Assembly: GCA_019359675.1 (NCBI GenBank)
Contig: JAHHGX010000037.1
Span: forward strand, 1 to 33,550
Source: Calothrix sp. FI2-JRJ7
GTDB taxonomy: Bacteria; Cyanobacteriota; Cyanobacteriia; Cyanobacteriales; Nostocaceae
Direction: 5' to 3'
Length of the DNA: 33,550 bases
Shown piece by piece: positions 70 through 33,408 of this stretch. Position 1 is the stretch's first letter; every line of letters starts with the position of its first letter. Both the position numbers and the translations under genes were made by a program. The notes below the pieces were generated by a model. The model worked only from the letters and a program-made list of their open reading frames with translations, was not told the DNA's origin and searched no databases.

Positions 70-544
70 TGAAATGTTACACACTTTACCAGTACAGCTT
101 TTCAGGCGCCTTTGTCACCCCTTCAGTGTTCGTACTCGGCGCCTCGATAACTTAGACATCTTACTCACAAGAGGTTGCGACTGGTTGCTTCCTTACCTCG
201 CTACCCATCCTACTGCGCGCGAAAGATTAAAAGTGTGTAATACAAAATCTAAGGTGTAGCTACAAAATATAAATTAACTATAAATCTTGTGGGATGGGCA
301 TCAAAAGCCCGTCCCTTAATAATTTCTCATATAATAGCGGGCAAGGATGCCCGTTCCACAAGAGCAGGATAAACAAAACAACTCGCGCGCTACTTGGAAA
401 TGGTTTGAGTATGCTTGTAATAGAGGTAAAAGTAACACTAACGTTCAAGTTAATAATTTTGAACTATACCCTTAAAAACGTGACACTTTAAGCTTTTGCG
501 AGATAATAACAAACATATGTACTCCGAAGGAGGCAGGTAAACAA
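70..544. other. Non-coding leader region with repeats
   Basis: No credible gene is seen upstream of the Uma2 gene. The stretch holds two GGCGCC sites (105 and 138), the hairpin repeat at 291-364, and AT-rich sequence. Short open frames here have no ribosome site or recognisable protein features. A strong Shine-Dalgarno (AAGGAGG, 527-533) closes the region just before the next gene. Confidence 0.5.
291..364. repeat. Dispersed hairpin repeat ending GTTCCACAAGAG
   Basis: The first hairpin has arms GGGATGGGC and GCCCGTCCC (291-315). A second, GCGGGCAAGGATGCCCGT, starts near 338 and is followed by GTTCCACAAGAG (353-364). The last 12-mer recurs at 1541-1552 and, inverted, at 4081-4092. It looks like a member of the short interspersed repeats common between genes in Nostocales. 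Confidence 0.6.
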
Positions 545-1303
545 ATGTCACCAGAAACCGCTGTAACTGAACAAACTTTAGAAGTTGTGGACGAATCTGT
601 GGACTGGCAACCACCAATGCCACCCACGGATTTGATATTTGACGACGGGGAACCCTTGGAAAGTAATCGCCATCGCATCGCCATGAACACCCTGATTCGG
701 TCATTGTTACAGCTTTGGGCTGACCGCAATGATTTTTTCGCAGGGGGTAATATGTTTGTTTATTACAGCAGCACACAAGCAATGAATCGAGATTTTAGAG
801 GTCCTGATTTCTTTGTAACGCTTGATGTTGACGGCACAAAAGAGCGTCAAGGTTGGGTGGTATGGCAAGAAAACGGACGCTATCCAGATGTAATTGTGGA
901 GTTGTTATCTGAAAGCACAGCAAAAGTAGATAAAGGTGTAAAGAAAGAACTTTATGAAAAAGTTTTTCGTACACGTAACTACTATATTTATGACCCGTTT
1001 GATAATAACTCACTTACTGGGTGGCGTTTGAATGCTTCTCAAAAATATGAACCAATTACACCTGATAGTCGAGGTTGGCTATGGAGCGAAGCTTTAGGAT
1101 TATGGCTTGGTACACACCAAGGTACTATTGACCGAGAAACTGCCGACTGGCTACGCTTTTATGATGAAACTGGTAATTTAGTACTTTTACCAGAAGAAGC
1201 GGAAAAACAGCGCGCGGATACCGAAGCTCAAAAAGCCGAGGCTGAACACCAGCGCGCGGAACGTCTTGCTGCAAGATTACGAGAGCTTGGAGAAGAAGTT
1301 TAG
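545..1303 (+). CDS. Uma2 family endonuclease (DUF820)
   Basis: The 252-residue protein matches the Uma2/DUF820 group of PD-(D/E)XK-fold proteins, which is hugely expanded in cyanobacteria. The core runs from about residue 40 to 190. Visible motifs are GPDFFV with the candidate metal-binding D88, then PDVIVELLSEST with candidate acid E119, and GVKKELYEKV followed by RNYYIYDP, all typical of the family. The last 55 residues are a charged, Glu/Ala/Arg-rich heptad-like helix, probably a coiled coil, a common tail on these proteins. Start: ATG with AAGGAGG 11 bases upstream. A good terminator follows at 1319-1363, so it is probably monocistronic. Nuclease fold is inferred from the family; the substrate and cellular role are unknown. 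Confidence 0.88.
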   Translation: MSPETAVTEQTLEVVDESVDWQPPMPPTDLIFDDGEPLESNRHRIAMNTLIRSLLQLWADRNDFFAGGNMFVYYSSTQAMNRDFRGPDFFVTLDVDGTKERQGWVVWQENGRYPDVIVELLSESTAKVDKGVKKELYEKVFRTRNYYIYDPFDNNSLTGWRLNASQKYEPITPDSRGWLWSEALGLWLGTHQGTIDRETADWLRFYDETGNLVLLPEEAEKQRADTEAQKAEAEHQRAERLAARLRELGEEV

Positions 1304-1318
1304 CTTTATAACTTAATT

Positions 1319-1363
1319 AAAATTCCCTTAACAGAGCATTCTATTGAGGGGATTTTATTTTTT
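1319..1363 (+). terminator. Intrinsic terminator after the Uma2 gene
   Basis: The arms AAAATTCCC (1319-1327) and GGGGATTTT (1348-1356) extend inward through TTAA/TTGA and AGA/TCT to a GCAT loop. This gives a stem of about 16 pairs with a single internal mismatch and one wobble or two. A T run follows at 1358-1363. The position 16 bases after the stop codon fits. Confidence 0.82.
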
Positions 1364-1814
1364 ACGTTATTTAATGATGACGTTTACATACAAACATTTG
1401 CATAATAAGTATCAAAATTTACTTTAACATCTCATTGTGTTCAAATATTTTAAAACTAAAGTATTACTTCATCCGCAAATTCAAAGTATTGCGGCACTAG
1501 CGTTATACTTTTATTTATTATTATTTATATCCCCATGCCTGTTCCACAAGAGGCTAATATTTAATTGCAGATAGTTTTATACTTATTATTAAATAATAAT
1601 TAAATCAATCACTAACACTACATTAAACCTACAAGATGTTACATTAGAATTGTAGTTACTTTAAGTAAGCGCCTTCTTTTAAATCTCTCTAACTTTTATT
1701 TCTGTGCCCTCTACGTCTTTGTGGTAATAATCAATTTTAAGCACTGAAGTGCTTAGTACGAGTACGAACTACAAACTACGAACTATAAATATTTAATTTT
1801 CGGAGATAGAGCCG
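1364..1814. other. AT-rich spacer with degenerate repeats
   Basis: No gene is seen. The spacer includes the GTTCCACAAGAG copy at 1541-1552. Near 1700-1727 is a stretch resembling the TCTGTGCCCTCTACGTC-type intergenic filler often seen in Nostocales. Low-complexity ACGAACTAC-like repeats follow at about 1758-1790. The ribosome site CGGAGATAG of the next gene starts at 1801. Confidence 0.45.
1541..1552 (+). repeat. GTTCCACAAGAG dispersed motif
   Basis: This is an exact copy of the 12-mer at 353-364. It is preceded by CATGCCT instead of GATGCCC, so the flanking hairpin has largely decayed. Confidence 0.5.
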
Positions 1815-6889: not shown

Positions 6890-7717
6890 ATGCTACAAAA
6901 ATCAATTGTATACCCATCACAAATACCTTTTGAAAATAGTATACATCCTTACCGAGGGATAACTACAGCTATTGCTATTATTGGTATATGGGCGGTTAGT
7001 TTAATTTTATTAATGACTGTAAATGTTCAAGATACTAATAAAATTGCTATAGTTGCTGCTGTGTTATGCCAAACTTTTTGTTACACAGGACTTTTTATTA
7101 CAGCACACGACGCAATGCATGGAGCAGTTAGCTCTTATAATCTTAAATTAAATCATTTTATCGGTTCGCTATGTCTATTTTTATACGGTGGGTTAACGTA
7201 TAAAACACTGCTAAAAAAACACTGGCAACACCATCAACATCCTGGTACAGAAAATGACCCAGATTTCCACGATGGAAAACACCAAAATGTGATTGCATGG
7301 TATTTACATTTCATGAAGGGATATTGGAGTTGGAAGCAAATTATCATAATAATGGTTGTTTATAACTCACTTGCTTTCCTTGCTCATGTACCACAAATAA
7401 ATCTTATTTTATTTTGGATAACACCTTCACTACTAAGTTCATTACAATTATTTTATTTTGGTACTTTTGAACCTCATAGTGAACCAATTACTGGATATAC
7501 AGATTCCTCTCATACCCGTACAATTTCTCGTCCTGCGTGGTTATCTTTCTTAACTTGCTATCATTTTGGATACCACGAAGAACATCATCAATACCCCAAT
7601 GTCCCTTGGTGGCAGTTACCTAAAGTTCATAATGCTGACTCGCTGCAATTGTCGGATATAAACTCGGACGTAGACAAAGATAAGCAAGAGGCCCAAACAG
7701 CGGCGCCAGTGCAATAA
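6890..7717 (+). CDS. crtW: Beta-carotene ketolase, CrtW type
   Basis: This is a membrane di-iron ketolase that adds 4-keto groups to beta-ionone rings, giving echinenone or canthaxanthin. The 275-residue protein shows the three histidine boxes: H73-DAM-H77, then H111-WQ-HH (111-115) followed by QHPG, and H229-EE-HH (229-233) followed by QYPNVPWWQLP. FFGTFEPH-like and DFHDGKHQN segments also match CrtW. Hydrophobic segments lie at about 24-44, 52-72, 90-102, 150-168 and 172-190. The family normally ends shortly after WWQLP. Here about 30 extra residues (VHNADSLQ onward, rich in D, K and Q) run 98 bases into the antisense neighbour, so the tail is probably a read-through extension. No other carotenoid gene is nearby. 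Confidence 0.9.
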   Translation: MLQKSIVYPSQIPFENSIHPYRGITTAIAIIGIWAVSLILLMTVNVQDTNKIAIVAAVLCQTFCYTGLFITAHDAMHGAVSSYNLKLNHFIGSLCLFLYGGLTYKTLLKKHWQHHQHPGTENDPDFHDGKHQNVIAWYLHFMKGYWSWKQIIIIMVVYNSLAFLAHVPQINLILFWITPSLLSSLQLFYFGTFEPHSEPITGYTDSSHTRTISRPAWLSFLTCYHFGYHEEHHQYPNVPWWQLPKVHNADSLQLSDINSDVDKDKQEAQTAAPVQ

Positions 7718-8297
7718 ATAGATATAATTGTCCCATCTGCTCTTTATTCCAGTTGCGACGAGCTATATCATCATCAAGAATACTCGTTGGAAACAATAAG
7801 TAAAATAAGCAGAAAGCAAGACTCATTCCATGAATAAATTTATCGTGCATGAACTGGTTAATAAAATCATCCCAGTTGCCAAAAATAAAAGCGTAAAGAA
7901 ATAAACCAAGAGTTGTAACCGTTAGGGAGTAAGCAAAAAAGCGCGAGTCGAGAAAGTTTAAAAATTTATCTTTCTCACCAGTAAAGCTTTGATTCGATTC
8001 GCGTAACGCCAAATATGGTATTAAACCTATAACACCCGATGCTACCGAAGCAATGGCAAAAGGATAAAATCGTATCGATTGCATTCGACCATCAAAAAAT
8101 AACAGACTACTATATATAAATAGCCAAATCCCCACAAGAGAGAATAATGATAAAATAACGGGGTTTACCTGCGTCCATTGAAGCGTAAGAATACTAACTA
8201 GTAATTTTATAGTCGCTTCTAGATGCAGTGGTGGGGCAAGAAAAACTACATAAAGAATAAATCCTGCCCATAATAACCACAATGCACTTCTATTCAT
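7620..8297 (-). CDS. Membrane protein of unknown function, paralogue B
   Basis: I do not recognise this 225-residue protein. About six hydrophobic segments are visible, and it is clearly homologous to the gene directly upstream (8321-9004). Shared positions include the LW-x-GF start with APP, GxW-IY, DGR, PYL-LR, DSR, GNWDDF (GNWGDF in the partner), FIHxMSL-FCL, LxDDxARR, and PLFGxLxYLCLR near the end. The charged DDxARR and FIH motifs are candidates for function. The spacing to the partner's stop is 23 bases, so they form an operon. Its 3' end overlaps the crtW tail by 98 bases on the opposite strand. The conserved PLFG-YLCLR motif lies inside that overlap, which supports this gene as the older occupant. 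Confidence 0.8.
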   Translation of the reverse strand: MNRSALWLLWAGFILYVVFLAPPLHLEATIKLLVSILTLQWTQVNPVILSLFSLVGIWLFIYSSLLFFDGRMQSIRFYPFAIASVASGVIGLIPYLALRESNQSFTGEKDKFLNFLDSRFFAYSLTVTTLGLFLYAFIFGNWDDFINQFMHDKFIHGMSLAFCLFYLLFPTSILDDDIARRNWNKEQMGQLYLFIALAPLFGPLAYLCLRPSLYPTIAASQHYEL

Positions 8298-8320
8298 AAC
8301 ATTCTTTATTTATATTTATT

Positions 8321-9004
8321 TTATGTTGTAGCTGGTTTTTGTTGACTTTGATTAATACTGCTACCGACTTCGGGTAAAGGTTTTCTTAGACATAAGTATA
8401 TCAAGGCGCCGAATAACGGAACTAATGCGGTTAACCAAAATAATCCTTTATTATCCGTCATTCCCCGACGTGCCATGTCGTCTTGAACTAAACTAGAGAA
8501 CAACAAACACAGCAAGCAAAAGTCTAAACTCATAACATGAATAAACCGACTTGTTTGCCATTGCTGTACAAAGTCACCCCAGTTCCCTTGGCTAATTCCA
8601 TAAAAAACTAAAATAATTGCACCAATAGATAACAAAATTGCTGTGATACGAGAGTCTAATATTTTAATAAAAGTATTTTTATGACCGACAAATTCGGGGT
8701 TCGCTGTACGCAAACCAAGGTAGGGTAGTAAAGCAAAGGCGCCTACTCCAAATGAAAACGTTGCAAATGGCCAAGCTGGTACTTTCTGACCCCTACCATC
8801 AATAAATACCAAACACGCATAAATCATGGGCCATACTCCCATGATATTGAATAAAGCAATTACCAAAGGATTGATTCCTTCCCATTGACCAGTCGATAGA
8901 TTTTTGATTAATTCAAATGTGTCGGGTTGGTCAGGGGGTGCGAATATAAAGGCGTAGGTAGTAAATCCTAGCCAGATTAACCAAAATGTTATTTTTCTTA
9001 GCAT
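8321..9004 (-). CDS. Membrane protein of unknown function, paralogue A
   Basis: This 227-residue polytopic protein is the first gene of a two-gene unit with its paralogue at 7620-8297, very likely a tandem duplication. It starts MLRKITFWLIWLGF with an amphipathic, membrane-entering N terminus. It contains IDGRGQ, PYLGLRTANPEFVGHK, LDSR, GNWGDFVQQW, FIHVMSLDFCLLCLLF and VQDDMARRG, each with a counterpart in the neighbour. The polar C-terminal tail (about 15 residues rich in S, Q and T) is not shared. The function is unknown; the proximity to crtW is convergent, not co-operonic. A C-rich hairpin repeat lies upstream, between it and the hrcA 3' end. Confidence 0.8.
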   Translation of the reverse strand: MLRKITFWLIWLGFTTYAFIFAPPDQPDTFELIKNLSTGQWEGINPLVIALFNIMGVWPMIYACLVFIDGRGQKVPAWPFATFSFGVGAFALLPYLGLRTANPEFVGHKNTFIKILDSRITAILLSIGAIILVFYGISQGNWGDFVQQWQTSRFIHVMSLDFCLLCLLFSSLVQDDMARRGMTDNKGLFWLTALVPLFGALIYLCLRKPLPEVGSSINQSQQKPATT

Positions 9005-9066
9005 ATATAGATAATACCTTTTAGTAATGAAGGCTTATCTATCTTAAGTGATATTTTTAAATGTTA

Positions 9067-9175
9067 AATCCCCCCAACCCCCTTAATAAGGGGGCTAAGA
9101 ATTAGTTTATTTTCAAAATAAATATTAATGCTTTAACTCCAGTTCCCCCCTTAGTAAGGGGGGTTAGGGGGGATC
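9067..9175. repeat. C-rich/G-rich hairpin repeat
   Basis: The sequence begins AATCCCCCCAACCCCCTTAA and ends GGGGTTAGGGGGGATC. Two internal hairpins (CCCCCTTAATAAGGGGG and CCCCCCTTAGTAAGGGGGG) lie within larger inverted arms. A second copy lies at 13959-14085. It begins a few bases beyond the hrcA stop codon and is likely its terminator. Confidence 0.75.
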
Positions 9176-9178
9176 TAT

Positions 9179-10258
9179 TTAACTAATCGCTTCGCTAAGA
9201 TATTCAGAAGCAGCAGTTACTACCGCAATAGCATTTTCGTAATCTAATCTTGTTGGTCCAAGTACCCCTATACTTCCAACTGGCACAGAACCGCGTCGGT
9301 AGGTGGATGATATTAATGTACAGCCACGTATTGGTTCTAATGGATTTTCGGCGCCAATGCGAATTGTGATTTTTGGTTTACCTGGTTCTTCTAATCCGTC
9401 GGTTTCTTCAAAAATTAGGCGCCAAAGTTGCTCTTGTTCTTCTTCTAAAAGCTGAATAATCGTTTGTACTTGCTGTAATTGCGAAAATTCAGGTTGTCGT
9501 AAAACCTCAGAAACTCCACGCACCATAATTTGTGTACGTTCAGAAGCAACTTTACGATGGTTTAATTCTGATAGCGATGTTTTTAAGAATTCTCCGTAAT
9601 GATGAAATTCACGGTCGAGTTGTGTCCAGTCTAGGTTTGCTAATTCAAAGGTGCTTTTTCCACGCAAATGACTGTTCAAGAAATTAGAAACTATCTGCAA
9701 CTCACGGTCTATTAACTCCGTATCGCGTTTATTTCCATCCGGTGCTGGTGGTATGTCTAATAAAGTGGAGTGCGTCTCATACCCCTCTGTCACCACTATT
9801 AACATTACTTTCCCAGCTTCGATTTGCACTAGTTGCAAGTGACGCAACACGGCGCCGCCATTTTGTGGCATCGTAATTAATGTTATGCAACCGCTCAAAG
9901 TCGAAAGTATTTGCGCTGCACCATGCAATAGCGCTTCTAAACTCCAATCTTCCCACTTCAAACGTGTTTGCAGCGCTTGCTCAACTTGCAAAGTTATCGC
10001 TTCACTTGGCGCCGTTAAATTATTTACGTAAATTCGATATCCTGAATCTGAAGGGACTCTACCCGCTGAGGTATATGGTTGATACAGCAACCCAGCTTTC
10101 TCAAGCACCCCCATCACATTCCGAATTGTCGCAGAGCTAACACCAAGATTATACTCTTCTAGCAAGGCTTTTGAACCAACTGGCTCGGCTGTGGCAATAT
10201 AGTGTCGCACCGTTGCCCAAAGTATATGCTGTTGTCGATTTGTTAATTGAACTGGCAT
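9179..10258 (-). CDS. hrcA: Heat-inducible transcription repressor HrcA
   Basis: HrcA represses groESL/dnaK-type heat-shock genes by binding CIRCE inverted repeats, with GroEL acting as a modulator. The 359-residue protein begins with the winged-helix region [17 protein letters not shown], then [26 protein letters not shown] and [20 protein letters not shown], which is diagnostic for the family. The C-terminal part ends with [20 protein letters not shown], also typical. The length is normal for a cyanobacterial HrcA. No CIRCE element (TTAGCACTC-N9-GAGTGCTAA) is visible upstream, so autoregulation through it is not supported here, and no chaperone gene lies in the window. Confidence 0.95.
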
Positions 10259-10785
10259 AGGATGTGTTTACTGAAGGCAAATCTTAATTAAAAGTTTTAA
10301 AGCTTAAATCTATCTGACAATAATTTCGGGTACATAGAATCTAAAATACTAATCCCAAGATTAATATTTTATTAAGGAAGATACCAAATCTATCCCCGAT
10401 TTTTAAGAAAAGTTAAATAAAGTTACATTTCTATATAGTAATTTAGTTTTTACTTCGATATTAGGTATAATATAATACCATGCCTCTTGCTAATTCATTA
10501 GTACTAGCAGATGCGTCAGTTTTACTAGTCCCTAAGTTTAATCTACATATATAGATGAATAAATGACCATCTACTGAAAGTAAGGTCTTTTCACTTACTG
10601 CTATTTAATTGTGCGAATTGAGACTTTATTCGTTGATATACTATATATAATTTCATAAGTAGTTACAAAACGCTGTATTGTTAAATACTAAAATACACGT
10701 CTGTTTATGCTTGCTGCCTCAGTAATAACGCTGGGTATGACGCTTTAAAGGTAAATATTGCATAAGTTTAACGTAGATAAAATCA
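10259..10785. other. 527-bp AT-rich spacer
   Basis: I see no gene. It lies upstream of hrcA and downstream of the rhodanese gene. TATAAT at about 10467 could be a -10 element, but no gene follows on the plus strand. A short hairpin with arms AGTAAG and CTTACT lies near 10580-10600. No Rfam-type RNA is recognised. Confidence 0.4.
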
Positions 10786-11142
10786 TTAGTATTGAGGAAT
10801 AGAGGGGTCAACTAAGCTTGAATAAGCTGCTATACCACCTGTAATATTTTTTACATTGGTAAAACCTTGATTTACAAGCCATTGGCACATTTGAGCGGAA
10901 CGAATACCATGATGGCAGAGCACAAGGGTTTCCGATTCGCAATCAAATTGTGTATGTATCTGCTCTCCCCAAGCTGCAAATTCACTCAAAGGCAGGTTGA
11001 CAAAACCTTCAATTCGAGCGATATCTATTTCTTGAGGTTCACGAACATCAATCAGCTGAATCTTGTCGGCGCCTGATAACAACCGTTCTTGTAATTGTTC
11101 GACGCTAACTTGAGAAAAGGGTGAGTCTGGATATTGCGCCAT
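10786..11142 (-). CDS. Single-domain rhodanese-like protein
   Basis: The 118-residue protein is one rhodanese domain, a persulfide-forming sulfurtransferase. The core reads IQLIDVREPQEIDIARIEGFVNLPL, the usual entry. The active-site loop is C76-HHGIRS, so the catalytic cysteine is present, and the end has NITGGIAAYS. The start is taken at MAQYPDSPF (ATG ending at 11142). Upstream in-frame sequence gives a Lys/Gly-rich, low-complexity extension that also overlaps the start of the divergent DUF3352 gene. The cytoplasmic substrate is unknown. It shares a 161-base divergent region with that gene. Confidence 0.9.
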   Translation of the reverse strand: MAQYPDSPFSQVSVEQLQERLLSGADKIQLIDVREPQEIDIARIEGFVNLPLSEFAAWGEQIHTQFDCESETLVLCHHGIRSAQMCQWLVNQGFTNVKNITGGIAAYSSLVDPSIPQY

Positions 11143-11303
11143 CTTGTTACTTAACTTTTTATTAACCAATATATTTCTTATCTTTACACAAAGAGCTTCG
11201 TTACTTCGTATCTTTTCCCTACATTTTCTGCTTTGAATACCCCCTTTCCCCTTTTTCCTTTCCCCTTTACCCTTAAAGTTGTTGGCAGTGAGAAATAGAA
11301 TAT

Positions 11304-12926
11304 ATGACGAAATCATTTGTTCGTCTTTTTGCAGTCAGTTTGGTTATGCTGCTTTTGAATGTTACGTGCAGTGCTTCTGTATTGGCAGCAAGTCCATTTG
11401 GTAAGGGTAGTGTAACAGAAGCATCTCTCTCAATATTCGTATCAAAGCAGGCGCCTGTAATGATATCTATATTGAATCCAGAAAAGTTACAGTCGTTGGA
11501 TAAAGGTGAGAACTCGTTCCTAAAAAGCGATTTTTTCAAGAATTCTGGGATTGATTTTCGCAAAGACATCCAACCTTGGCTAGGAAACGAAGTTACACTT
11601 GCTGTCACTAGCTTAGATTTTGACCGTGACCCCGATAACGGTAAGTCACCTGGATATTTGCTCGCAATAGCAACTAAATCACCAGAAAAAAGCCGCGAGT
11701 TTGTACAGTTATTTTTCTCGAAACGAGTTTTAGCAGGCGCAGACTTAAGTGTGGAAGAGTTTGCAGGTATAAAACTTATCTCTGATGCCCCAAAAGATAA
11801 GGGAACGTTAGCGGGTGCAGTAGTTGGTGATAAATACGTTTTGTTTGCGAACGACGCCAAAGTGCTGCGTGAAGCGATAAATAACGCTCAAGCACCCGAT
11901 TTAAGTTTAACTTCGTCGAAGAAATATCAAGATATTAGTCAACTATCAGCAAAATCCTATGGTGCAGCGTTTTTAAATCTTCCAATTGTGGCAGAATGGC
12001 TTGGTTTGAAACTACCTATACAAAAGTTTGATGAGCAACTTGTAACGTTGGTGCCAGTTTCTAAAGGTTTACTTGCTCAAACAGTAGCATTACCTACTCA
12101 AGAATTGAAGGCGCCGTTAGAGTTATTATCAAAACCTGTAAATGCGCTCAAATATATTCCAGCAAACGTTGGTATTGCTGTTGGGAGTAAAAACTTAAGC
12201 ACTTTACCCGAAAGTAATTTAGCTTTATTTGGGCAGCAACTGGGAAGCGCGTTAGGAATTAAGGTTAATATCAACGATTTTGGGCAACAAGACTTCAAAA
12301 CTCAGAAGCGTTGGGGAATAGACTTACCAAAAGATATCTTTGATTGGGTACAAGGTGAATATGCTATTGGCTTGATATCATCACCTCAACAATCACCTGA
12401 ATGGATTTTTATTACCGAAAAGGCGCCTTCTACACAAGACGGTATCGCAAAACTCGATGCAATAGCAGCTAAAAACGGGTTAAATGTTACTGAGTTCAAC
12501 CTACTTGACCAACATATTGTTGCTTGGACACAGTTAAAAGCTGCCAACTCCAGTAAAAATGGAACTAAACCATCTTTTAATATTGAAGCAAAAGCTTACG
12601 GAGTACATACAACTTTAGATAACTATGAAATTTTTACTTCATCCTTAGAGACTATGTACGAAGTTCTTTCAATTAAGGATAATACATTATTAGAAAACCG
12701 CAATTTTAAGAATTGTATCGCCGCGCTTCCTGAAACAAACGCTGGCTATGTCTACATAGATTGGGCAGCTAGTCAAGATATTTTAGAGCGTCAGCTGCCT
12801 GTACTCAAACTGCTCAAAGTAGTCGCTAAACCTTTGTTCAATAATTTGCGCTCATTAACCGTCACTAACTATGGTGATGATGCTAACTCACTTAAAGGTG
12901 ATGTGTTTTTTCAACTTGAAGAATAA
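11304..12926 (+). CDS. DUF3352 domain exported protein
   Basis: The 540-residue protein fits the cyanobacterial DUF3352 family, whose function is unknown. The first 29 residues look like a signal peptide: basic KSFVR, then a hydrophobic AVSLVMLLLNV, then a site near VLAAS. The rest is a long soluble protein with family-like landmarks: QAPVMISILNPEKL, DIQPWLGNEVTLAV, GYLLAIATKSPEKSREFV, and PANVGIAVGS later. The repeated pattern of strands ending in a Gly-Ala step suggests two similar halves. The start lies 161 bases from the divergent rhodanese start. No Shine-Dalgarno is clear. It is probably periplasmic or membrane-associated. Confidence 0.82.
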   Translation: MTKSFVRLFAVSLVMLLLNVTCSASVLAASPFGKGSVTEASLSIFVSKQAPVMISILNPEKLQSLDKGENSFLKSDFFKNSGIDFRKDIQPWLGNEVTLAVTSLDFDRDPDNGKSPGYLLAIATKSPEKSREFVQLFFSKRVLAGADLSVEEFAGIKLISDAPKDKGTLAGAVVGDKYVLFANDAKVLREAINNAQAPDLSLTSSKKYQDISQLSAKSYGAAFLNLPIVAEWLGLKLPIQKFDEQLVTLVPVSKGLLAQTVALPTQELKAPLELLSKPVNALKYIPANVGIAVGSKNLSTLPESNLALFGQQLGSALGIKVNINDFGQQDFKTQKRWGIDLPKDIFDWVQGEYAIGLISSPQQSPEWIFITEKAPSTQDGIAKLDAIAAKNGLNVTEFNLLDQHIVAWTQLKAANSSKNGTKPSFNIEAKAYGVHTTLDNYEIFTSSLETMYEVLSIKDNTLLENRNFKNCIAALPETNAGYVYIDWAASQDILERQLPVLKLLKVVAKPLFNNLRSLTVTNYGDDANSLKGDVFFQLEE

Positions 12927-12927
12927 A

Positions 12928-12989
12928 TGTAGAGACGCGGTAGAGACGCGATTATTAAGAGCGGGACACTACGTTAACGCGTCTCTACA
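12928..12989. repeat. Hairpin repeat, GTAGAGACGCG family with doubled left arm
   Basis: TGTAGAGACGCG (12928-12939) is followed at once by a second copy of the arm (GTAGAGACGCG, 12940-12950). The right arm CGCGTCTCTACA is at 12978-12989. The loop shares GGGACACTACGT with the member at 5580-5631. It starts one base after the stop codon of the DUF3352 gene. Confidence 0.75.
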
Positions 12990-13015
12990 TTGTGTCAGAT
13001 TAGTATCTGTCACAA
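12990..13015. repeat. Short hairpin after the GTAGAGACG repeat
   Basis: TTGTGTCAGAT pairs with ATCTGTCACAA around a TAGT loop with a single mismatch. It lies between the repeat above and the next gene, about 75 bases before that start codon. It could be a terminator, or an operator for the small exported protein. Confidence 0.5.
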
Positions 13016-13089
13016 CCCTTAAGTTCTTCAAGGTGTTTTCTAGTTATTATATGTATATAACTTTACTCATACACCGTTGAAGGGCTGCT

Positions 13090-13620
13090 ATGAACAAACG
13101 TCAATATCGACTATTGTCAGCCTCGCGAATCAACCAATTTCTGCACAGAAATGCTTGGTCAAAAGGCGGATGGCTTTTGGGTATACTTACGGTCATTATC
13201 TCACTTCCAGTAATGGCTGATACGGCAAACTTTGGTACTATTAGTTTGGCGCCAGGTTTTGATAGCACCACAGCTTCATTGTCAGGGTATACAGGTGGCT
13301 CTTATTCGCTATCCGCAATAACCAAACGGGACGCCAACAACAAAGCTTGTATTGGGTTTGCCGACCCAACACCCGACCATATAGTAGTTTTACAAAAAGA
13401 TTTTTCTAATTTAAGAATTACTGTAGATAGTGATGGTTCAGACACCACACTTTTAGTTCAGGCGCCAGACGGTAAAATTTACTGCGGTGATGACACTGGT
13501 AGACGTAAAGATGCCAGCGTCGCATTAAACCAATGGAAACAAGGAAATTACAAAATTTGGGTAGGCACTTTTAACCCAGGTGTCAAACTCAATTACACCT
13601 TAACTATACAACAACCCTAG
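13090..13620 (+). CDS. Small exported protein with PPC-like C-terminal fold
   Basis: The 176-residue protein has a long, basic N-terminal stretch. A hydrophobic segment follows at about residues 27-42 (GWLLGILTVIISLPVMA), with a likely signal cleavage after MA-43. The mature part is beta-rich. Its last 80 residues (NLRITVDSDGSDTTLLVQAP, then a YCGDD turn, then GNYKIWVGTF) resemble bacterial pre-peptidase C-terminal (PPC) beta-sandwich domains. Two cysteines (in KACIGF and IYCGDD) could form a disulfide. The function is unknown. Start: ATG with GAAGGG about 8 bases upstream. Confidence 0.78.
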   Translation: MNKRQYRLLSASRINQFLHRNAWSKGGWLLGILTVIISLPVMADTANFGTISLAPGFDSTTASLSGYTGGSYSLSAITKRDANNKACIGFADPTPDHIVVLQKDFSNLRITVDSDGSDTTLLVQAPDGKIYCGDDTGRRKDASVALNQWKQGNYKIWVGTFNPGVKLNYTLTIQQP

Positions 13621-14254: not shown

Positions 14255-17233
14255 GTGGTTTTACAAGCACAAACAAGCAATTACGAGACTAAAACTCAAG
14301 AAATTGCTAAACAGCTTCTCGCAGCTACCCAAGAAAATCGTTCATTTTTGGCAAATCTCCGCGACCAGATGCGCTGGGATGATAAATTGCTAGCTTGGGC
14401 AATGAGTAATCCCGGTTTACGGGTGCAGTTATTCCGTTTTATTGATACTCTACCTGCGTTACACGATAAATCTGAAATTGCCGCGCATTTACAGGAATAC
14501 CTTGGTGATGAGTCGGTAGAACTACCTGCGGCGCTCAAAGGCATGTTAAACTTTGCTAATCCCAATTCGGCGCCAGGTCAGTTAGCAGCAACTACAGTTA
14601 TTACAGCTACCGAAACATTAGCGCATAAGTATATTTCTGGTGAAAACACCAAGCAGGTGTTGAAAACCATTGAACGTTTGCGTAAAGATAAAATGGCGTT
14701 CACGGTAGATTTACTCGGTGAAGCTGTTATTACCGAAACTGAAGCAGTATCTTATCTTGAACGTTACATCGACTTGATGCAGCAGTTAACCGAAGCATCT
14801 AAGAGTTGGAGTAAAGTTCCATTAATCGACGAAGCTGATTCCGTACCAATACCCCAGGTACAAGTATCGGTAAAATTAACCGCGTTTTACTCGCAGTTTG
14901 ACCCGTTGGATGCTACGGGTAGTGAAGAAAAAGTTAGTGAGCGCATTAGAATTTTACTACGACGTGCAGCACAACTAGGCGCCTCTGTTCACTTTGATAT
15001 GGAACAGTACGCTTATAAGGATATAACTTTTAGTATCCTCAAGAAAATTTTGATGGAAGATGAGTTTTGCACCCGAACTGATGTTGGGATGACGGTTCAA
15101 GCTTACCTTCGTGACAGTGAGCAAGATGCACGTGATTTAATTGCTTGGGCAAAACAGCGAGGATATCCGGTTACAATTCGTTTAGTTAAAGGCGCCTATT
15201 GGGATCAAGAAACGATAAAGTCGATGCAAAAGCATTGGCAACAACCAGTTTACAACGATAAAGCTGCAACCGATGCCAATTTTGAAGCAATAACTCAGTT
15301 ACTGCTCGAAAATCATCAATATATATATGCTGCTATCGGTAGTCATAACGTTCGCTCACTTTCCCGTGCCATAGCTATTGCCGAAAATTTAAATGTAAAC
15401 AAACGCAGCTTTGAAATGCAGGTTCTTTACGGGATGGGAGATAAAATCGCCAAACCCCTCGCTGATAAAGGCTATAGAGTACGAGTGTATTGTCCTTATG
15501 GTGAATTACTGCCTGGAATGGCGTATTTAATTCGTAGGTTACTAGAAAACACTGCGAATAGTTCGTTTTTACGCCAAAACATGGAAAACCGTCCAGCAGA
15601 GGAATTATTAGCGGCGCCTAAAGTTAATCTAGAAAAAGACACAATACATAATACCAACACAAACGGGTTTGTTGGCGCCGCAGATACAGATTATTCTCTT
15701 GTAGATACCAGACAACGTGCGTCATCGGATTTAACTAAAGTCAAAAACAACCTTGGAAAAACTTATTTACCTTTAATTAACGGTGAGTACGTGCAAACCG
15801 ACGAAGTTGTTGACTCGATAAACCCATCGAATAAAAGCGAAGTTGTTGGTAAAATTGGACTTGCCAGCGTTGAACAAGCTGAAGATGCAATGAAAGCTGC
15901 CGCAAATGCATTTAAAGTGTGGCGAAAAACAGCAGTAAGTGAGCGTGCAGCAATATTGCGGAAAGCAGCAGATTTAATGGAAAATCGGCGCCCAGAATTA
16001 TCAGCATGGATAGTCTTGGAAGTCGGTAAACCCGTTCGAGAAGCTGATGGTGAGGTTTCAGAAGCAATTGATTTCTGCCGCTACTACGCGCTAGAAATGG
16101 AGCGGTTAGATAAAGGTGTTAATTATGACATCGCAGGTGAAACAAATAGATATATCTATCAACCACGTGGTATTGCAGTAGTTATTTCACCGTGGAATTT
16201 TCCACTTGCCATTGCCGCAGGAATGACATTAGCTGCGCTAGTAGCAGGAAATTCAACCATACTCAAACCAGCAGAAACATCTTCAGTAATTGCTGCTAAA
16301 TTCGCCGAAATTATGGTTGAAGCAGGAATTCCTAAAGGTGTATTCCAATATTTACCTGGTAAAGGTTCTAAAGTTGGTGCCTATTTAGTCAATCATATGG
16401 GTACACACATCATTGCTTTTACTGGTTCACAAGAAGTCGGGTGTCGTATATACTCAGACGCTGCAATTGTAAAACCTGGGCAAAAGCACATGAAGCGTGT
16501 TATCGCTGAAATGGGGGGCAAAAACGCCATTATTATCGATGAAAGTGCCGACTTAGACGCAGCCGTCGTTGGTGTCGTACAATCAGCATTTGGTTATAGT
16601 GGACAAAAGTGTTCTGCTTGTTCACGAGTCATAGTCCTAGAACCTGTATACGAAACTTTTGTACAGCGGTTTGTTGAAGCCACAAAATCATTAAACATCG
16701 GCGCCGCAGAATTGCCAAGTACCCAAGTAGGCCCAGTCATCGACGCAAATGCTCAAGCGCGTATCCTAGAATATATCGAAAAAGGTAAAGCCGAATCGAA
16801 CATCGCACTAGAAATGCAGGCGCCGGATAATGGATACTACATAGGTCCCGTCATCTTTAAAGACGTACCTGCTAATGGTACTATTGCCCAACAAGAAATA
16901 TTTGGGCCAGTAGTAGCTGTTATTAAAGCCAAAGACTTCCAAGAAGCATTACAAATAGCCAACGGTACCGACTATGCTTTAACAGGTGGAATATACTCAC
17001 GTACACCCTCACATATTGAGCAAGCACAAACCGACTTTGAAGTAGGAAACTTATACATCAACCGCACCATTACAGGAGCAATAGTAGCAAGACAACCCTT
17101 CGGAGGATTCAAACTTTCTGGAGTTGGTTCCAAAGCAGGAGGCCCCGATTACCTATTACAATTTCTAGAACCAAAAACCGTAACCGAAAACATTCAACGT
17201 CAAGGTTTCGCACCAATAGAAGGAGCAGATTAA
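14255..17233 (+). CDS. putA: Bifunctional proline dehydrogenase / P5C dehydrogenase
   Basis: PutA oxidises proline to glutamate in two steps: an FAD-dependent PRODH barrel, then an NAD-dependent aldehyde dehydrogenase. The 992-residue protein has an N-terminal helical part, then the PRODH domain (about 85-440) with TIRLVKGAYWD and RVYCPYGELLPGMAYLIRRL. The ALDH domain (about 505-980) follows, with PWNFPLAIAAGM, FTGSQEVG, E752 in AEMGGKNA, catalytic C786 in GQKCSACSRV, and EIFGPVVAV. There is no DNA-binding N-terminal domain, so it is not an autorepressor. The start codon is GTG, chosen because the conserved protein begins MVLQ. A weak CTGGAG lies about 11 bases upstream. Confidence 0.94.
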   Translation: MVLQAQTSNYETKTQEIAKQLLAATQENRSFLANLRDQMRWDDKLLAWAMSNPGLRVQLFRFIDTLPALHDKSEIAAHLQEYLGDESVELPAALKGMLNFANPNSAPGQLAATTVITATETLAHKYISGENTKQVLKTIERLRKDKMAFTVDLLGEAVITETEAVSYLERYIDLMQQLTEASKSWSKVPLIDEADSVPIPQVQVSVKLTAFYSQFDPLDATGSEEKVSERIRILLRRAAQLGASVHFDMEQYAYKDITFSILKKILMEDEFCTRTDVGMTVQAYLRDSEQDARDLIAWAKQRGYPVTIRLVKGAYWDQETIKSMQKHWQQPVYNDKAATDANFEAITQLLLENHQYIYAAIGSHNVRSLSRAIAIAENLNVNKRSFEMQVLYGMGDKIAKPLADKGYRVRVYCPYGELLPGMAYLIRRLLENTANSSFLRQNMENRPAEELLAAPKVNLEKDTIHNTNTNGFVGAADTDYSLVDTRQRASSDLTKVKNNLGKTYLPLINGEYVQTDEVVDSINPSNKSEVVGKIGLASVEQAEDAMKAAANAFKVWRKTAVSERAAILRKAADLMENRRPELSAWIVLEVGKPVREADGEVSEAIDFCRYYALEMERLDKGVNYDIAGETNRYIYQPRGIAVVISPWNFPLAIAAGMTLAALVAGNSTILKPAETSSVIAAKFAEIMVEAGIPKGVFQYLPGKGSKVGAYLVNHMGTHIIAFTGSQEVGCRIYSDAAIVKPGQKHMKRVIAEMGGKNAIIIDESADLDAAVVGVVQSAFGYSGQKCSACSRVIVLEPVYETFVQRFVEATKSLNIGAAELPSTQVGPVIDANAQARILEYIEKGKAESNIALEMQAPDNGYYIGPVIFKDVPANGTIAQQEIFGPVVAVIKAKDFQEALQIANGTDYALTGGIYSRTPSHIEQAQTDFEVGNLYINRTITGAIVARQPFGGFKLSGVGSKAGGPDYLLQFLEPKTVTENIQRQGFAPIEGAD

Positions 17234-27285: not shown

Positions 27286-28632
27286 ATGTACAGTAAAGAT
27301 ACAGAAGAACGAATTACTCTCACAATTCACGAAGGTTTAATTTGTTTGTTACTACCCGAACAATGGAATAACGGTAAACAAGTAACGTTAGCTTTAGGTT
27401 TGCCTGATAATCCATCCGGGCGCCGTCAAGCTCAGTTAATAGTTCAAGAAATGGAGCTAGATTATGCTAAAGGGCAGTTGAAAGAGTGGGAACATTATCA
27501 GAAAGCTAATAATAAGCCAGAAGTAACTCTTGAAGTAACCTCAAACTTAGAAGTCGAATTTCTAAGATTGTGGGATGAATTTATTAATTCTTACCGTACT
27601 CAAATAGAAGAAACGTCGCTAATTTTCACTTATAACAGAGCTAGAAATCATATTATCAAAAATCCTTATAAATTATTTAGCCAAGCGTCAGAGATGCTCT
27701 ATCTCAGGACTTACCCATGAAAACCTAGAAACCTTGTTTCTTCGTTGATAACATGTAATAAAAATGACGATTTGTCTGCGACAATGAATGCGTAGAAACC
27801 AGGTTTGTTTGCGTAAGCCCTATATCTTATAGATAGTACTTCTCCCACTATTGCTAAAAGAATTTTAATGTTTTGGAATAAGTCTTGTAACTGGGGAGTG
27901 AGCGCGAACAAAATACCGAGCAATCCTTTTAAAGGAATGAAAGATTTAATAGTAATACCAAGCAATAAGAGTAAGCTTGAAATTACAGAAAATTCTGGTT
28001 ATAACAGCATCGATCCATTTTCTGAAGCAGAAGCTAAAGTCATTTTAAAAGCCTTTGAAAATCACCATCAATATTGTCATTATAAACCACTAGTACATTT
28101 CTTATTTTTGACTGGGTGCAGAAGTTCTGAAGCAGTTAGCTTGAGTTGGGAACATATATCCAGTGACCTAAAAATTATTACTTTTCAAGATGCTATTGTA
28201 TCTGCTTCAGGAAATTTAATAAAGAAGAGATTGAAAAATAAAGACGTTCGGAAGTTCCCTTGTAATCAACAACTTCAAGATTTACTAAGTAGTATAAAAC
28301 CCAATGATAAAGCAGAGGGAATAGTTTTCAAATCATTAGACGGCAAAATCATTAGAACACGTGTATTTAATGCTCTTGTATGGAATCAATGCACTATTCA
28401 TGGAAAAAAGTATATAGGTCTAGTAAGACAACTAGCTAATGACGGAAAAATTCATCATTATAGACCACAATATCAAACGCGCCACACGTTTATTACCTGT
28501 ATGATTAATGCTGGGATGGAAGTAAGGTATTTGGCTCAACTGGTAGGTAATTCACCAGAAATCATTTATAAATATTATGCTGGGCTGAAACCTGGAGGCT
28601 TTATAATTCCTTCACTAGATTTAGATGTTTAA
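27286..28632 (+). pseudogene. Tyrosine recombinase/integrase split by a MITE
   Basis: The N-terminal part (27286-27704) encodes an arm-binding-like domain (TIHEGLICLLLPEQWNNGKQ, then LGLPDNPSGRRQAQLIVQ) and the start of the core-binding domain. A 118-bp element (27705-27822) follows and supplies a TGA stop at 27718. The reading frame resumes at 27823 with YLIDSTSPTIAKRILMFW and continues to a TAA at 28630. The C-terminal part has the catalytic arginine in TGCRSSE, the YQTRHTF box, LVGNSPEIIYKYYAG and the final tyrosine (near 28573-28578). Removing the element plus one 5-bp duplication (123 bp) rejoins a 407-codon frame, usual for this family. The catalytic half may still be made from the ATG at 27868, but it lacks most of the core-binding domain. 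Confidence 0.9.
27705..27822. mobile_element. MITE-like element, copy B (118 bp), inserted in the integrase gene
   Basis: It begins CAGGACTTACCC and ends GCGTAAGCCCTA, with one mismatch in each TIR compared with copy A. A 5-bp target duplication TATCT lies on both sides (27700-27704 and 27823-27827). Its internal 64 bases (27743-27806) are identical to the inverted copy A at 13777-13840. It is non-coding, and the four residues RTYP and a stop come from its left end. Confidence 0.9.
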
Positions 28633-31686: not shown

Positions 31687-32892
31687 ATGGTTTACCAACC
31701 AGCAGCGGGAGCTAGGGATTTACTCCCCCTTGATGTAGCTCAAAAACGCTGGATTGAAGATAGGTTACAGCAGGTTTTTCACCGTTGGGGCTATCACCAA
31801 ATTATCACTTCGACGCTGGAGCGTATGGATACGCTGATGGCTGGAGGTGCGATTGGGCGCCGCGCGGTGTTGAAACTGCAAAATGAGGAACAGGAAGAGT
31901 TAGGGTTGCGTCCGGAATTAACTGCTTCGATTGCTCGCACTGCCGTAACACGTATGGCAGGTGCGGCATATCCGCAGCGTTTGTATTACAATGCAAATGT
32001 ATTTCAGCGACGAGAATCGAAACATAATCGGCAGCAAGAGTTTTACCAATCGGGGGTAGAGTTACTTGGCAGCAGTGGATTATTGGCAAATGCGGAAATA
32101 CTATTGCTGGTATCAGAAAGCCTTGCTGCGTTGGGTTTAAACAATTGGCATTTAGTTTTGGGTGAAGCGGGGATTACACGCTCTTTACTCGAAGCATTTC
32201 CTGCTAAGTTGCTTGATAGTGTTCGTAATGCTATTGCAAATCTTGACCGAGTAGCGCTTGATGAACTGCCTTTAACTGATGAACTGCACGAACGCGCGCG
32301 GTTGATGCTTGATTTACGTGGGCGCCCAGAGGTAGTGTTTGGTCTTCTGACAAATTTAGTATTAGAACCAGCGCAACAAGAAGCGGTCGATGGGTTGAAA
32401 TCTTTAGTTGAGTTGCTTAAGTCGAGTGGGAATTTTTCCATTATTCTTGATTTAAGTTTGATTCAGACTTTTGATTATTACACGGGTATTGTGTTTGAAG
32501 TTGTTACAAATACAGACGGTCAATCCATTTCGATTGGTCGGGGTGGTCGCTATGACAATCTTTTGGGGCTGTATCATCCGCAAGGAGAAAATATCCCTGG
32601 TATTGGTTTTGTTTTTTTACTAGATGGTTTATATCAGATATTATCAGTGTCGCAACAGTTGCCACAGACAACACCAGCGGCGAACTGGTTGGTAGTGGCT
32701 TTAAGTCCGCAAGCATACAATACAGCTTTTGCTTACAGTGCCAAACTTCGTAACTCCACGCATTTGGTACGAGTTGAGATGGACTTAGGGGAACGAGATG
32801 AAAAAGCAATTAGAGAATATGCGGTACGTCGAGGCATTGGGCAGATTGCTTGGATAAAAGCTGATGCTCCACCTGTTATTGAGTCGGTGTAA
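31687..32892 (+). CDS. hisZ: ATP phosphoribosyltransferase regulatory subunit HisZ
   Basis: HisZ is a HisRS-like paralogue that activates the short form of HisG at the first step of histidine synthesis. The 401-residue protein starts VYQPAAGARDLLPLDVAQKRWIEDRLQQVF. Family landmarks follow: LGLRPELTASIARTAVTRM, RLYYNANVFQRRESKHNRQQEFYQSGVELLG, FDYYTGIVFEV and GGRYDNLLG. It lacks the C-terminal anticodon-binding domain of true HisRS, and the region after about residue 315 is short, so HisZ is preferred. The 3-base gap to the J-domain gene suggests translational coupling. hisG is not in the window. Confidence 0.93.
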   Translation: MVYQPAAGARDLLPLDVAQKRWIEDRLQQVFHRWGYHQIITSTLERMDTLMAGGAIGRRAVLKLQNEEQEELGLRPELTASIARTAVTRMAGAAYPQRLYYNANVFQRRESKHNRQQEFYQSGVELLGSSGLLANAEILLLVSESLAALGLNNWHLVLGEAGITRSLLEAFPAKLLDSVRNAIANLDRVALDELPLTDELHERARLMLDLRGRPEVVFGLLTNLVLEPAQQEAVDGLKSLVELLKSSGNFSIILDLSLIQTFDYYTGIVFEVVTNTDGQSISIGRGGRYDNLLGLYHPQGENIPGIGFVFLLDGLYQILSVSQQLPQTTPAANWLVVALSPQAYNTAFAYSAKLRNSTHLVRVEMDLGERDEKAIREYAVRRGIGQIAWIKADAPPVIESV

Positions 32893-32979
32893 AACATGAA
32901 CAAGATTTTACATAATCTTGCTAATGTATAAAAGCTTTAGTACAGCTTTATCGCCTAAATAGTTCGGAGAGGGAACATT

Positions 32980-33204
32980 ATGCCGCATACAATTGTTACA
33001 AATGTCTGTGAAGGTGTCGCTGACTGCGTAAATGCTTGTCCAGTTGCTTGTATTCATGATGGTCCTGGAAAAAATACCAAAGGTACTGATTGGTACTGGA
33101 TTGATTTTGCTACCTGTATCGACTGCGGTATTTGTCTACAGGTTTGTCCAGTTGAAGGCGCCATTCTTCCTGAAGAGCGTCCAGAGCTACAAAAAACACC
33201 ATAA
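32980..33204 (+). CDS. Two-cluster bacterial-type ferredoxin
   Basis: The 74-residue protein has eight cysteines: C10, C16, C20 (CP), C24, then C46, C49, C52 and C56 (CP). The second set is a clean CxxCxxC-x3-CP 4Fe-4S motif. The first has the uneven C-x5-C-x3-CP spacing of 7Fe/8Fe ferredoxins, so either a 3Fe-4S or a 4Fe-4S cluster fits. The middle insert (DGPGKNTKGTDWYWIDFAT) is typical of the cyanobacterial short form. GGAGAGG lies about 8 bases before the ATG. A hairpin terminator follows at 33215-33267. It is probably a low-potential electron carrier; the partner is unknown. Confidence 0.9.
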   Translation: MPHTIVTNVCEGVADCVNACPVACIHDGPGKNTKGTDWYWIDFATCIDCGICLQVCPVEGAILPEERPELQKTP

Positions 33205-33214
33205 CCTCTAACTA

Positions 33215-33267
33215 AATAACCGTTAATCAATTTTCAGATCACTCTCGACTATTGATTAACGGCTATT
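33215..33267 (+). terminator. Hairpin terminator after the ferredoxin gene
   Basis: CCGTTAATCAAT (33220-33231) pairs perfectly with ATTGATTAACGG (33251-33262). The stem extends outward through AATA/TATT with one mismatch. It starts 11 bases after the stop codon. There is no long T run, so termination is likely but not of the strongest kind. Confidence 0.6.
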
Positions 33268-33408
33268 TATAGGTTGGTGTCGAGGAATGTAAACGTAGTT
33301 TTCCGCAGAGAGACCCAACTAGAATATTCTATTTTTTCAGACATATCAACGAAAGCGCTTCAGCAGCAAAGGGTTTGAAGGCGCCTGTAAGCAGCATTTA
33401 CGACGTGC

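What the first reader, a model, noticed from the sequence alone, without database searches (positions are those of the whole stretch)
105..33385. GGCGCC is extremely over-represented and HIP1 appears absent
By eye I count about 62 GGCGCC sites over 33.5 kb, in both genes and spacers. At about 40 percent GC one or two would be expected by chance. HIP1 (GCGATCGC), normally the most frequent octamer in heterocystous cyanobacteria, is not found. GGCGCC seems to have taken HIP1's place as the iterated palindrome. In genes it often encodes Gly-Ala or Ala-Pro. This hints at a lineage with a different DNA methylation or maintenance system.
Basis: partly seen in the sequence, partly recalled or inferred. 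Interest (0 to 1): 0.85.

Follow-up and report, generated by a model that had tools for sequence, protein, structure and literature searches.

The report
GGCGCC has replaced HIP1 genus-wide
In this group of filamentous cyanobacteria the short DNA word GGCGCC is sprinkled through the whole genome about every 600 bases and is kept from mutating away, apparently together with a stand-alone DNA methylase, in place of the word (HIP1) that nearly all their relatives use; the swap was already published for one strain, and here it proves to be shared by a whole genus.

Summary
The window has 62 GGCGCC (2.9 expected) and no HIP1; the genome has 14,889 GGCGCC (one per 581 bp) and 31 HIP1. All 7 genus genomes examined share the swap; 0 of 210 others of the family do. 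It is an alternate "highly iterated palindrome", published by Elhai (2015) for Calothrix PCC 7103. New here: (i) it marks a genus, though that paper argued such cases are sporadic; (ii) 7 of 7 carry a cytosine-5 methylase that in 17 of 23 loci of other genera adjoins a HindVP-type restriction gene, absent from the genus (0 of 7); (iii) GGC and GCC third bases change 3 to 5 times less often inside sites than outside; (iv) the commonest loss is C to T at the inner cytosine, as 5-methylcytosine would leave, though clear in one lineage only; (v) sites do not coincide with HIP1 of three relatives (small test). Best explanation: a domesticated solitary methylase and its site form a maintenance mark. 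Methylation is not shown, and a methylase without the enzyme is not sufficient: 17 other genomes (4 with fragments only) lack the effect.

The parts
105..33385 (.). 62 copies of the palindrome GGCGCC, mean spacing 546 bp, largest gap 1952 bp; first bases at 105, 138, 1893, 2694, 2807, 2924, 3245, 3707, 4003, 4213, 4884, 6426, 7702, 8405, 8738, 9350, 9418, 9851, 10008, 11068, 11450, 12110, 12422, 13248, 13461, 13682, 14569, 14978, 15191, 15613, 15674, 15987, 16700, 16819, 18085, 18382, 18463, 19183, 19211, 20053, 20116, 20423, 20457, 21367, 22472, 22799, 24751, 24784, 25200, 26216, 26575, 27419, 29058, 29557, 29891, 29946, 30401, 31224, 31856, 32321, 33157, 33380
   Evidence: spacing
14255..17233 (+). 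example gene with many sites: PutA (proline dehydrogenase plus aldehyde dehydrogenase) holds 8 of the 62 (14569, 14978, 15191, 15613, 15674, 15987, 16700, 16819); two of them (14569, 16819) are intact in all six sister genomes
31687..32892 (+). housekeeping gene carrying sites (histidyl-tRNA synthetase-like): 31856 and 32321

Best explanation
GGCGCC is the highly iterated palindrome (HIP) of this cyanobacterial genus and stands in for HIP1. The genus ancestor lost HIP1. It also kept the methylase of a former GRCGYC-type restriction-modification pair (HindVP-type enzyme plus m5C methylase) after losing the enzyme. The solitary methylase now probably puts 5-methylcytosine on the inner C of GGCGCC (GG-mC-GCC) on both strands, about every 600 to 900 bp. 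Sites are old and are kept against mutation, synonymous bases included (the four outer bases most strictly, the inner C and G less so), most likely because the methylated sites serve genome maintenance (for instance strand or self marking for mismatch repair). Deamination of the inner mC is the main way in which sites are lost. Shown: density, genus-wide sharing, low HIP1, a methylase of this family in 7 of 7 genomes, absence of the HindVP-type enzyme, site-specific conservation, C-to-T decay bias in part of the comparisons. Inferred: ancestral order of events, specificity of the methylase, methylation in the cell, the maintenance role.
For: GGCGCC 1,150 to 1,719 per Mb in 7 of 7 genus genomes; highest of 210 others 110.8 per Mb. 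HIP1 3.6 to 22.6 per Mb in 7 of 7. A roughly 317-aa m5C methylase (PF00145) in 7 of 7, dN/dS 0.05 to 0.15 over the 15 pairs of 6 genomes. In 17 of 23 examined loci of other genera an adjacent upstream ORF of one cluster, in some split, precedes it; the two members tested are RE_HindVP, E 2e-154 and 1.7e-151. In 6 of 7 genus genomes the upstream ORF belongs to another cluster, whose one member tested is RuBisCO-like. PF09519 in 43 of 217 genomes (42 over the cut-off) but 0 of 7 of the genus. Outside the genus, methylase plus enzyme goes with GGCGCC avoidance: median 0.71 per Mb (39 genomes) against 5.09 (150 with neither), P 1e-6, so the pair probably recognises a set that includes GGCGCC. Codon-matched conservation G060 to G061: third base of GGC changed 9 of 100 inside sites, 57 of 214 outside; GCC 4 of 100 against 54 of 255; CGC 1 of 40 against 82 of 321; flanks 80 of 456 against 1740 of 8702 elsewhere. 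Changed sites G060 to G061: 35 of 50 are GGTGCC or GGCACC. That is the only one-off neighbour raised over the outgroup: 350 and 186 per Mb against 95. Inner C/G at codon positions 1 and 2 changed 15 of 232 against 166 of 4883 for other CpG, P 0.026.
Against: No methylation data. The methylase family has no tested member here, and GRCGYC for HindVP is recalled. Of the other 210 genomes 17 have a methylase hit without the enzyme (13 near full length and open, 4 fragments or broken: G019, G097, G105, G124) and no GGCGCC excess (median 6.1 per Mb, maximum 42.6), so the methylase alone is not sufficient. A restriction enzyme of another family was not looked for. From G061 to G060 only 8 of 29 changed sites are GGTGCC or GGCACC and inner C/G changes are not above other CpG (12 of 182 against 408 of 3956); of 9 directed comparisons one (G060 to G061) shows a significant excess and one (G061 to G065, 1 of 53) a significant deficit. 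At third codon positions the inner C/G changed less than other CpG (20 of 152 against 553 of 2300), and the GCG codon, whose third base is the inner G, is little conserved (11 of 52 against 85 of 328). Sites are not evenly spaced: the coefficient of variation is about 1.05 and gaps reach 4.3 to 4.5 kb in the samples, no sign of a spacing rule. 13 private losses against 0 private gains at 62 positions suggest slow net erosion rather than balance. Other m5C families, one of them 7 of 7 (but widespread outside the genus), could contribute; m4C and m6A methylases were not surveyed.
Confidence: 0.6

Rival explanations
1. Biased repair without function (Elhai's ratchet): a hypothetical nicking activity that reads G-mC directs mismatch repair so that mutations creating GG-mC-GCC are kept, and sites accumulate as a by-product.
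For: Proposed in PMC4390886 for this very motif. Its requirement that the inner C be methylated fits the decay footprint found here. GACGCC/GGCGTC, the half-way forms, are low (O/E 0.37 and 0.29 against 0.74 in the outgroup). Restoring repair would also give the observed site conservation.
Against: 0 private gains against 13 private losses at 62 positions in five close genomes: no sign of present-day creation of sites in this stretch. GGTGCC, one step away, is in excess instead of being consumed. No spacing rule is seen.
Confidence: 0.25
2. Very-short-patch repair: a Vsr endonuclease turns T:G mismatches in GGTGCC back into C:G and so enriches GGCGCC, as suggested for CCWGG in E. coli (recalled).
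For: A 5mC methylase and decay to GGTGCC would give the right substrate.
Against: No Vsr (PF03852) match in 7 of 7 genus genomes, while 5 of 14 control genomes ring, 4 over the cut-off. GGTGCC should be depleted and is enriched.
Confidence: 0.04
3. Composition or codon usage: GGCGCC is frequent because of preferred Gly-Ala or Ala-Pro codons.
For: 43 of 54 coding sites read Gly-Ala or Ala-Pro.
Against: 62 against 2.9 in shuffles; reversed word CCGCGG 8 genome-wide; sites outside called ORFs too (8 of 62) and in all three frames; GGC and GCC codons outside sites are not specially conserved.
Confidence: 0.01
4. A recognition word for DNA uptake, recombination or another sequence-reading machine (uptake-sequence-like or Chi-like), with methylation incidental.
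For: Genome-wide spread, conservation, and absence from one of twenty 20-kb blocks of G061 (0 sites, L203), which may be recently acquired DNA.
Against: A fully symmetric palindrome that coincides with a conserved methylase fits a methylation site better (inference); no candidate reader was looked for.
Confidence: 0.08

Closest known systems
GGCGCC alternate HIP of Calothrix PCC 7103 (and 19,301 nt of Calothrix D253), Elhai 2015, PMC4390886
   Same: Same hexamer, HIP1 nearly absent, GACGTC strongly and GACGCC moderately low, GRCGYC-type methylases, two in that strain; G061 (11.6 Mb, two methylases of this family) may be PCC 7103, not shown.
   Different: There one genome, judged sporadic and 'not in clades'; here 7 of 7 genomes of a genus. 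There methylation at the inner C is a requirement of the model, and site conservation between sister genomes is not reported in the parts read; here both are addressed by comparing sister genomes, and absence of the HindVP-type enzyme is shown for the genus.
HIP1 (GCGATCGC) with solitary GATC and CGATCG methylases
   Same: GC-rich palindrome, about one per 600 to 1000 bp, in genes and spacers, solitary methylases.
   Different: Different word and methylase; sites show no positional overlap with HIP1 of three relatives beyond the GC-rich background.
HindVP-type type II restriction-modification system (RE_HindVP PF09519 plus m5C methylase)
   Same: The methylase is homologous, 57 to 71 percent identical to near-full-length copies in other genera.
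   Different: No PF09519 enzyme in 7 of 7 genus genomes, and the site is over-represented instead of avoided.

Membership tests
Highly iterated palindrome (HIP class, Elhai 2015) | GC-rich palindrome, extreme outlier over expectation | tested here: met
   O/E 18.6 (193.6 kb of G000) and 22.3 (400 kb of G061) under an order-1 model; top of the 6-mer palindromes in both
Highly iterated palindrome (HIP class, Elhai 2015) | about 1000 to 2000 sites per Mb, in genes and spacers | tested here: met
   1,150 to 1,719 per Mb in 7 of 7; in the window 54 in called ORFs and 8 outside
Highly iterated palindrome (HIP class, Elhai 2015) | alternate HIPs occur only where HIP1 is low | tested here: met
   HIP1 31 to 163 per genome in 7 of 7
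Highly iterated palindrome (HIP class, Elhai 2015) | genome encodes a methylase able to modify the site | tested here: inconclusive
   methylase of a family paired elsewhere with HindVP-type enzymes in 7 of 7; specificity inferred from avoidance and recalled names, not measured
Highly iterated palindrome (HIP class, Elhai 2015) | site is methylated in the cell | not testable with these tools
   no methylome data held; only the C-to-T footprint
HindVP-type restriction-modification system | methylase with an adjacent RE_HindVP gene | tested here: not met
   PF09519 0 of 7 genus genomes; the upstream ORF is of another cluster in 6 of 7, RuBisCO-like in the one tested
HindVP-type restriction-modification system | avoidance of the recognition site | tested here: not met
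   GGCGCC over-represented about 20-fold, although GACGTC stays low (O/E 0.05 and 0.03; outgroup 0.10)
Vsr-driven enrichment | Vsr endonuclease present, T form depleted | tested here: not met
   PF03852 0 of 7; GGTGCC raised

The most novel reading that the evidence does not exclude
A genus-wide, selectively maintained swap of the genome's maintenance mark: a restriction system lost its enzyme, its solitary methylase was domesticated, and the whole genome was refitted with a new methylated palindrome that purifying selection now keeps, site by site, in place of HIP1. A second lineage (G435, another family of the same order, 1 HIP1 in 109 kb, GGCGCC 2,198 per Mb in that sample, a relative of the same methylase) may have taken a related road independently.
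Probability: 0.35. Interest if true: 0.72.

Novelty: new member of a known kind. Interest (0 to 1): 0.5.

Why it matters
The function of HIP1, the most frequent word of most cyanobacterial genomes, is open. A genus of seven sequenced species in which the word was swapped, with a candidate methylase gene in all seven, turns the question into a testable one: delete the methylase, read the methylome, count mutations. It also corrects the published argument that alternate HIPs are sporadic and do not persist in clades, which was used to argue that HIP1 itself is specially selected. The site-by-site conservation measured here says that an alternate HIP, too, is held against mutation.

Tried and rejected
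Composition or codon bias: rejected by shuffles, the reversed-word control and codon-matched conservation. Vsr repair: rejected as far as the Pfam family goes. Site-by-site replacement of HIP1: not found, but the test is weak: 3 relatives, 5 to 8 aligned HIP1 sites each, and GC-rich control 6-mers overlap HIP1 in only 3.0 to 5.2 percent, so about 0.5 overlaps per relative were to be expected by chance. The 370-aa m5C methylase family (7 of 7 in the genus) as the GGCGCC enzyme: set aside because one search found it in many Nostocales outside the genus. Other enriched genomes: the samples of G448 (38 kb) and G561 (14 kb) are headed by CGATCG and HIP1-like words, and neither has a close homologue of the methylase; G512 has no match and was not sampled. 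NCBIfam gave only general m5C names. Script one search failed on a parsing error and was corrected. GACGTC depletion is not informative, because the outgroup shows it too. Regular spacing was looked for and not found.

Limits: gene calls for codon positions are simple longest-ORF calls. Pairwise comparisons share genomes and are not independent. Rank tests over 210 genomes ignore phylogeny. The methylase search scored at most 10 candidates per genome, so absences are not proof; the loci examined are the 30 best of 63 genomes with a match. Methylase and enzyme presence includes partial genes. One search used rounded genome sizes. Synteny allowed 27 to 31 kb of the window for four close genomes and 120 kb for the pair G060/G061.
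Full report
OBSERVATION. The window holds 62 GGCGCC sites between 105 and 33385; 100 dinucleotide shuffles give 2.92 on average and 7 at most. Base composition alone (38.2 percent GC) gives 1.6; the next palindromic hexamer by observed/expected, CGCGCG, has 9 against 1.6. HIP1 is absent, which 33.5 kb alone could not make significant. The window is part of an 8.66-Mb genome in 91 contigs. That genome has 14,889 GGCGCC and only 8 of the reversed control CCGCGG; HIP1 occurs 31 times against 51 for its reversed control.

WHO SHARES IT. Among 217 genomes of the family, the 7 of the window's genus (G000, G060 to G065) have 7,475 to 20,380 GGCGCC each, that is 1,150 to 1,719 per Mb or one per 581 to 869 bp; the other 210 have at most 110.8 per Mb. 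HIP1 is 31 to 163 per genome in the genus (3.6 to 22.6 per Mb), while 206 of the other 210 have more than 1,000 (exceptions G182 with 30, G184, G191 and G194). In 388 genomes drawn across the class, which include no other member of the genus, G000 alone combines more than 1,000 per Mb with a near-empty reversed control; G435 (9,489 in 3.8 Mb, control 2,450) and genomes of family f16 with controls in the hundreds or thousands also pass 1,000 per Mb.

ALREADY IN PRINT. Elhai 2015 (PMC4390886; seen: abstract, outline, passages, sections 12, 18 and 19) describes GGCGCC as the alternate HIP of Calothrix PCC 7103 and of 19 kb of Calothrix D253, with HIP1 nearly absent, two GRCGYC-type methylases and a truncated CGATCG methylase gene. 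It proposes a G-mC-dependent mismatch-repair ratchet, and argues that such cases are sporadic and not in clades. A full-text search for GGCGCC with cyanobacteria and palindrome found only that paper. Searches with HIP1, Calothrix, methylome, Dulcicalothrix and related terms listed no follow-up on this motif (listings only: 10 of 10, 20 of 30, 4 of 4 and 15 of 333 papers seen); subscription papers are mostly outside that library. The genus-wide sharing found here contradicts 'not in clades'.

THE METHYLASE. PF00145 hits in the 7 genomes were fetched and clustered. At 70 percent identity two families are in 7 of 7: a roughly 317-aa one and a 370-aa one. The 370-aa family is widespread in other Nostocales and so cannot mark the genus. 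The 317-aa family occurs in 63 of 217 genomes. I examined the 30 loci fetched. In 17 of the 23 from other genera an upstream ORF of one cluster, split in some, precedes it, often overlapping or abutting; the two members tested are RE_HindVP (PF09519, E 2e-154 and 1.7e-151). In 6 of 7 genus genomes the upstream ORF is of another cluster, RuBisCO-like in the one tested; in G062 the copy scored is another one, and pieces 97 and 93 percent identical lie at the starts of two contigs. PF09519 is found in 43 of 217 genomes but in 0 of 7 of the genus. That HindV-type enzymes cut GRCGYC is recalled; Elhai's finding of two GRCGYC methylases in PCC 7103 fits the two members of this family in G061. Independent support that the pair sees GGCGCC: outside the genus, genomes with both genes have a median of 0.71 GGCGCC per Mb (n 39), those with neither 5.09 (n 150; P 1e-6), those with the methylase alone 6.08 (n 17; P 0.57) and those with the enzyme alone 1.16 (n 4). 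So restriction, not methylation, goes with the avoidance. The 17 (13 of them near full length and open) also show that a methylase without the enzyme is not enough to create a HIP. Four of them, G076 to G079 of one genus, keep abundant HIP1 and have 20 to 43 GGCGCC per Mb. In the tree of 35 proteins the six orthologous genus copies form one clade (support only 0.65); dN/dS between them is 0.05 to 0.15.

WHICH BASE. One-off neighbours of GGCGCC were counted in 193.6 kb of G000, 400 kb of G061 and 400 kb of the HIP1-type G003. GGTGCC/GGCACC is the only neighbour that is raised (186 and 350 per Mb against 95); the others are lower than in G003, which also reflects the lower GC of the genus. Of 50 changed sites from G060 to G061, 35 are GGTGCC or GGCACC; in the reverse direction 8 of 29. 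Polarised with outgroups, 7 of 13 private losses are of this kind. Inner C/G at the constrained codon positions 1 and 2 changed 15 of 232 against 166 of 4883 for other CpG (P 0.026); at third positions they changed less than other CpG (20 of 152 against 553 of 2300). This mix, raised input and partial retention, is what 5-methylcytosine at the inner C of a maintained site would leave. Against it: of 9 directed comparisons one (G060 to G061) shows a significant excess of TG/CA at sites over other CpG, seven no significant difference and one (G061 to G065) a deficit.

SITES ARE HELD. G061 to G060, 152 of 181 aligned sites are identical against 234 of 373 other all-GC 6-mers (P 2e-7). Codon-matched, G060 to G061: third base of GGC changed 9 of 100 inside sites against 57 of 214 outside; GCC 4 of 100 against 54 of 255; CGC 1 of 40 against 82 of 321; GCG, whose third base is the inner G, only 11 of 52 against 85 of 328; G/C third positions in 15-bp flanks changed 80 of 456, elsewhere 1740 of 8702. 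The reverse direction and the two window comparisons agree in direction for all four codons. Outside called ORFs the outer bases changed 0 of 47 against 640 of 6395 (P 0.012). So the hexamer itself is kept, its outer bases above all, and not its neighbourhood or only its amino acids. In the window, 23 of 77 positions carry the site in all five close genomes; of 62 positions with full data 13 show a private loss and 0 a private gain. That speaks for an old, slowly eroding, conserved set rather than present-day creation by a ratchet.

NOT VISIBLY IN HIP1'S PLACES. Aligning the window with orthologous stretches of three HIP1-type genomes, 0 of 12, 0 of 12 and 1 of 13 GGCGCC sites overlap HIP1; GC-rich control 6-mers overlap in 3.0, 5.2 and 3.6 percent. 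The density was replaced; a site-by-site replacement is not seen, in a small test. Spacing is random-like (coefficient of variation 1.05 in G000 samples, 1.04 in G061; largest gaps 4,315 and 4,451 bp).

MECHANISM. I commit to a domesticated solitary methylase whose site is kept because the mark is useful in genome maintenance (0.60 for the whole chain; the role in repair is inference). The ratchet is the main rival. Vsr repair is excluded as far as the Pfam family goes (0 of 7), and by the excess of GGTGCC.

A SECOND LINEAGE? G435, of another family of the order, has 240 GGCGCC and 1 HIP1 in 109 kb, and a methylase 54 percent identical to the genus one over 301 residues. Two members of its genus have HIP1 in their samples (G423 31 in 40 kb, G461 16 in 20 kb); the third, G281, has none in 20 kb. 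Its GC is 53 percent, O/E is only 4.0, CCGCGG is common too (62), and AGCGCC/GGCGCT is even more abundant (O/E 5.9), so its word is wider than GGCGCC and a GRCGYC methylase would not explain it. It is a lead, not a case.

Noticed in passing
window 13745-13890: A 146-base stretch with long terminal inverted repeats (arms near GGACTTACGC/GCGTAAGTCC; DNA fold z-score -3.45). Its core of about 120 bases has dozens of copies (77 to 98 percent identical in the listed part) across the own genome, G062 and, fewer, other sisters (one on the minus strand at window 27704-27822): a MITE-like family.
   Followed up: partly
G435 (L291-L297, L283): Another cyanobacterium of the order almost without HIP1 and with an over-represented GGCGCY-like word (GGCGCC 2,198 and AGCGCC/GGCGCT 4,240 per Mb in 109 kb), plus a relative of the same methylase.
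   Followed up: partly
L306 (G281:C1:1-20000): Same genus as G435: no HIP1 in 20 kb, and GGCCCTGG-like words head the 8-mer list; perhaps yet another iterated word. Only 20 kb seen.
   Followed up: no
L203 (G061:C7:100001-120000): No GGCGCC in this 20-kb block, while the other 19 blocks have 22 to 72; possibly recently acquired DNA. GGCGCC density could serve as a foreign-DNA marker in this genus.
   Followed up: no
window and G000/G061 samples: Many other palindromes are strongly avoided (CGATCG, AGATCT, TTCGAA, CTGCAG, GACGTC, ACCGGT; O/E 0.12 or less in G000), as expected after exposure to several restriction systems; the GATC-containing ones fit Elhai's report of a GATC enzyme in PCC 7103.
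   Followed up: no
G061 genome: GGTGCC/GGCACC is about twice as frequent as in G000 (350 against 186 per Mb) and 6 of 13 private site losses are in this lineage: site maintenance may be weakening there.
   Followed up: partly
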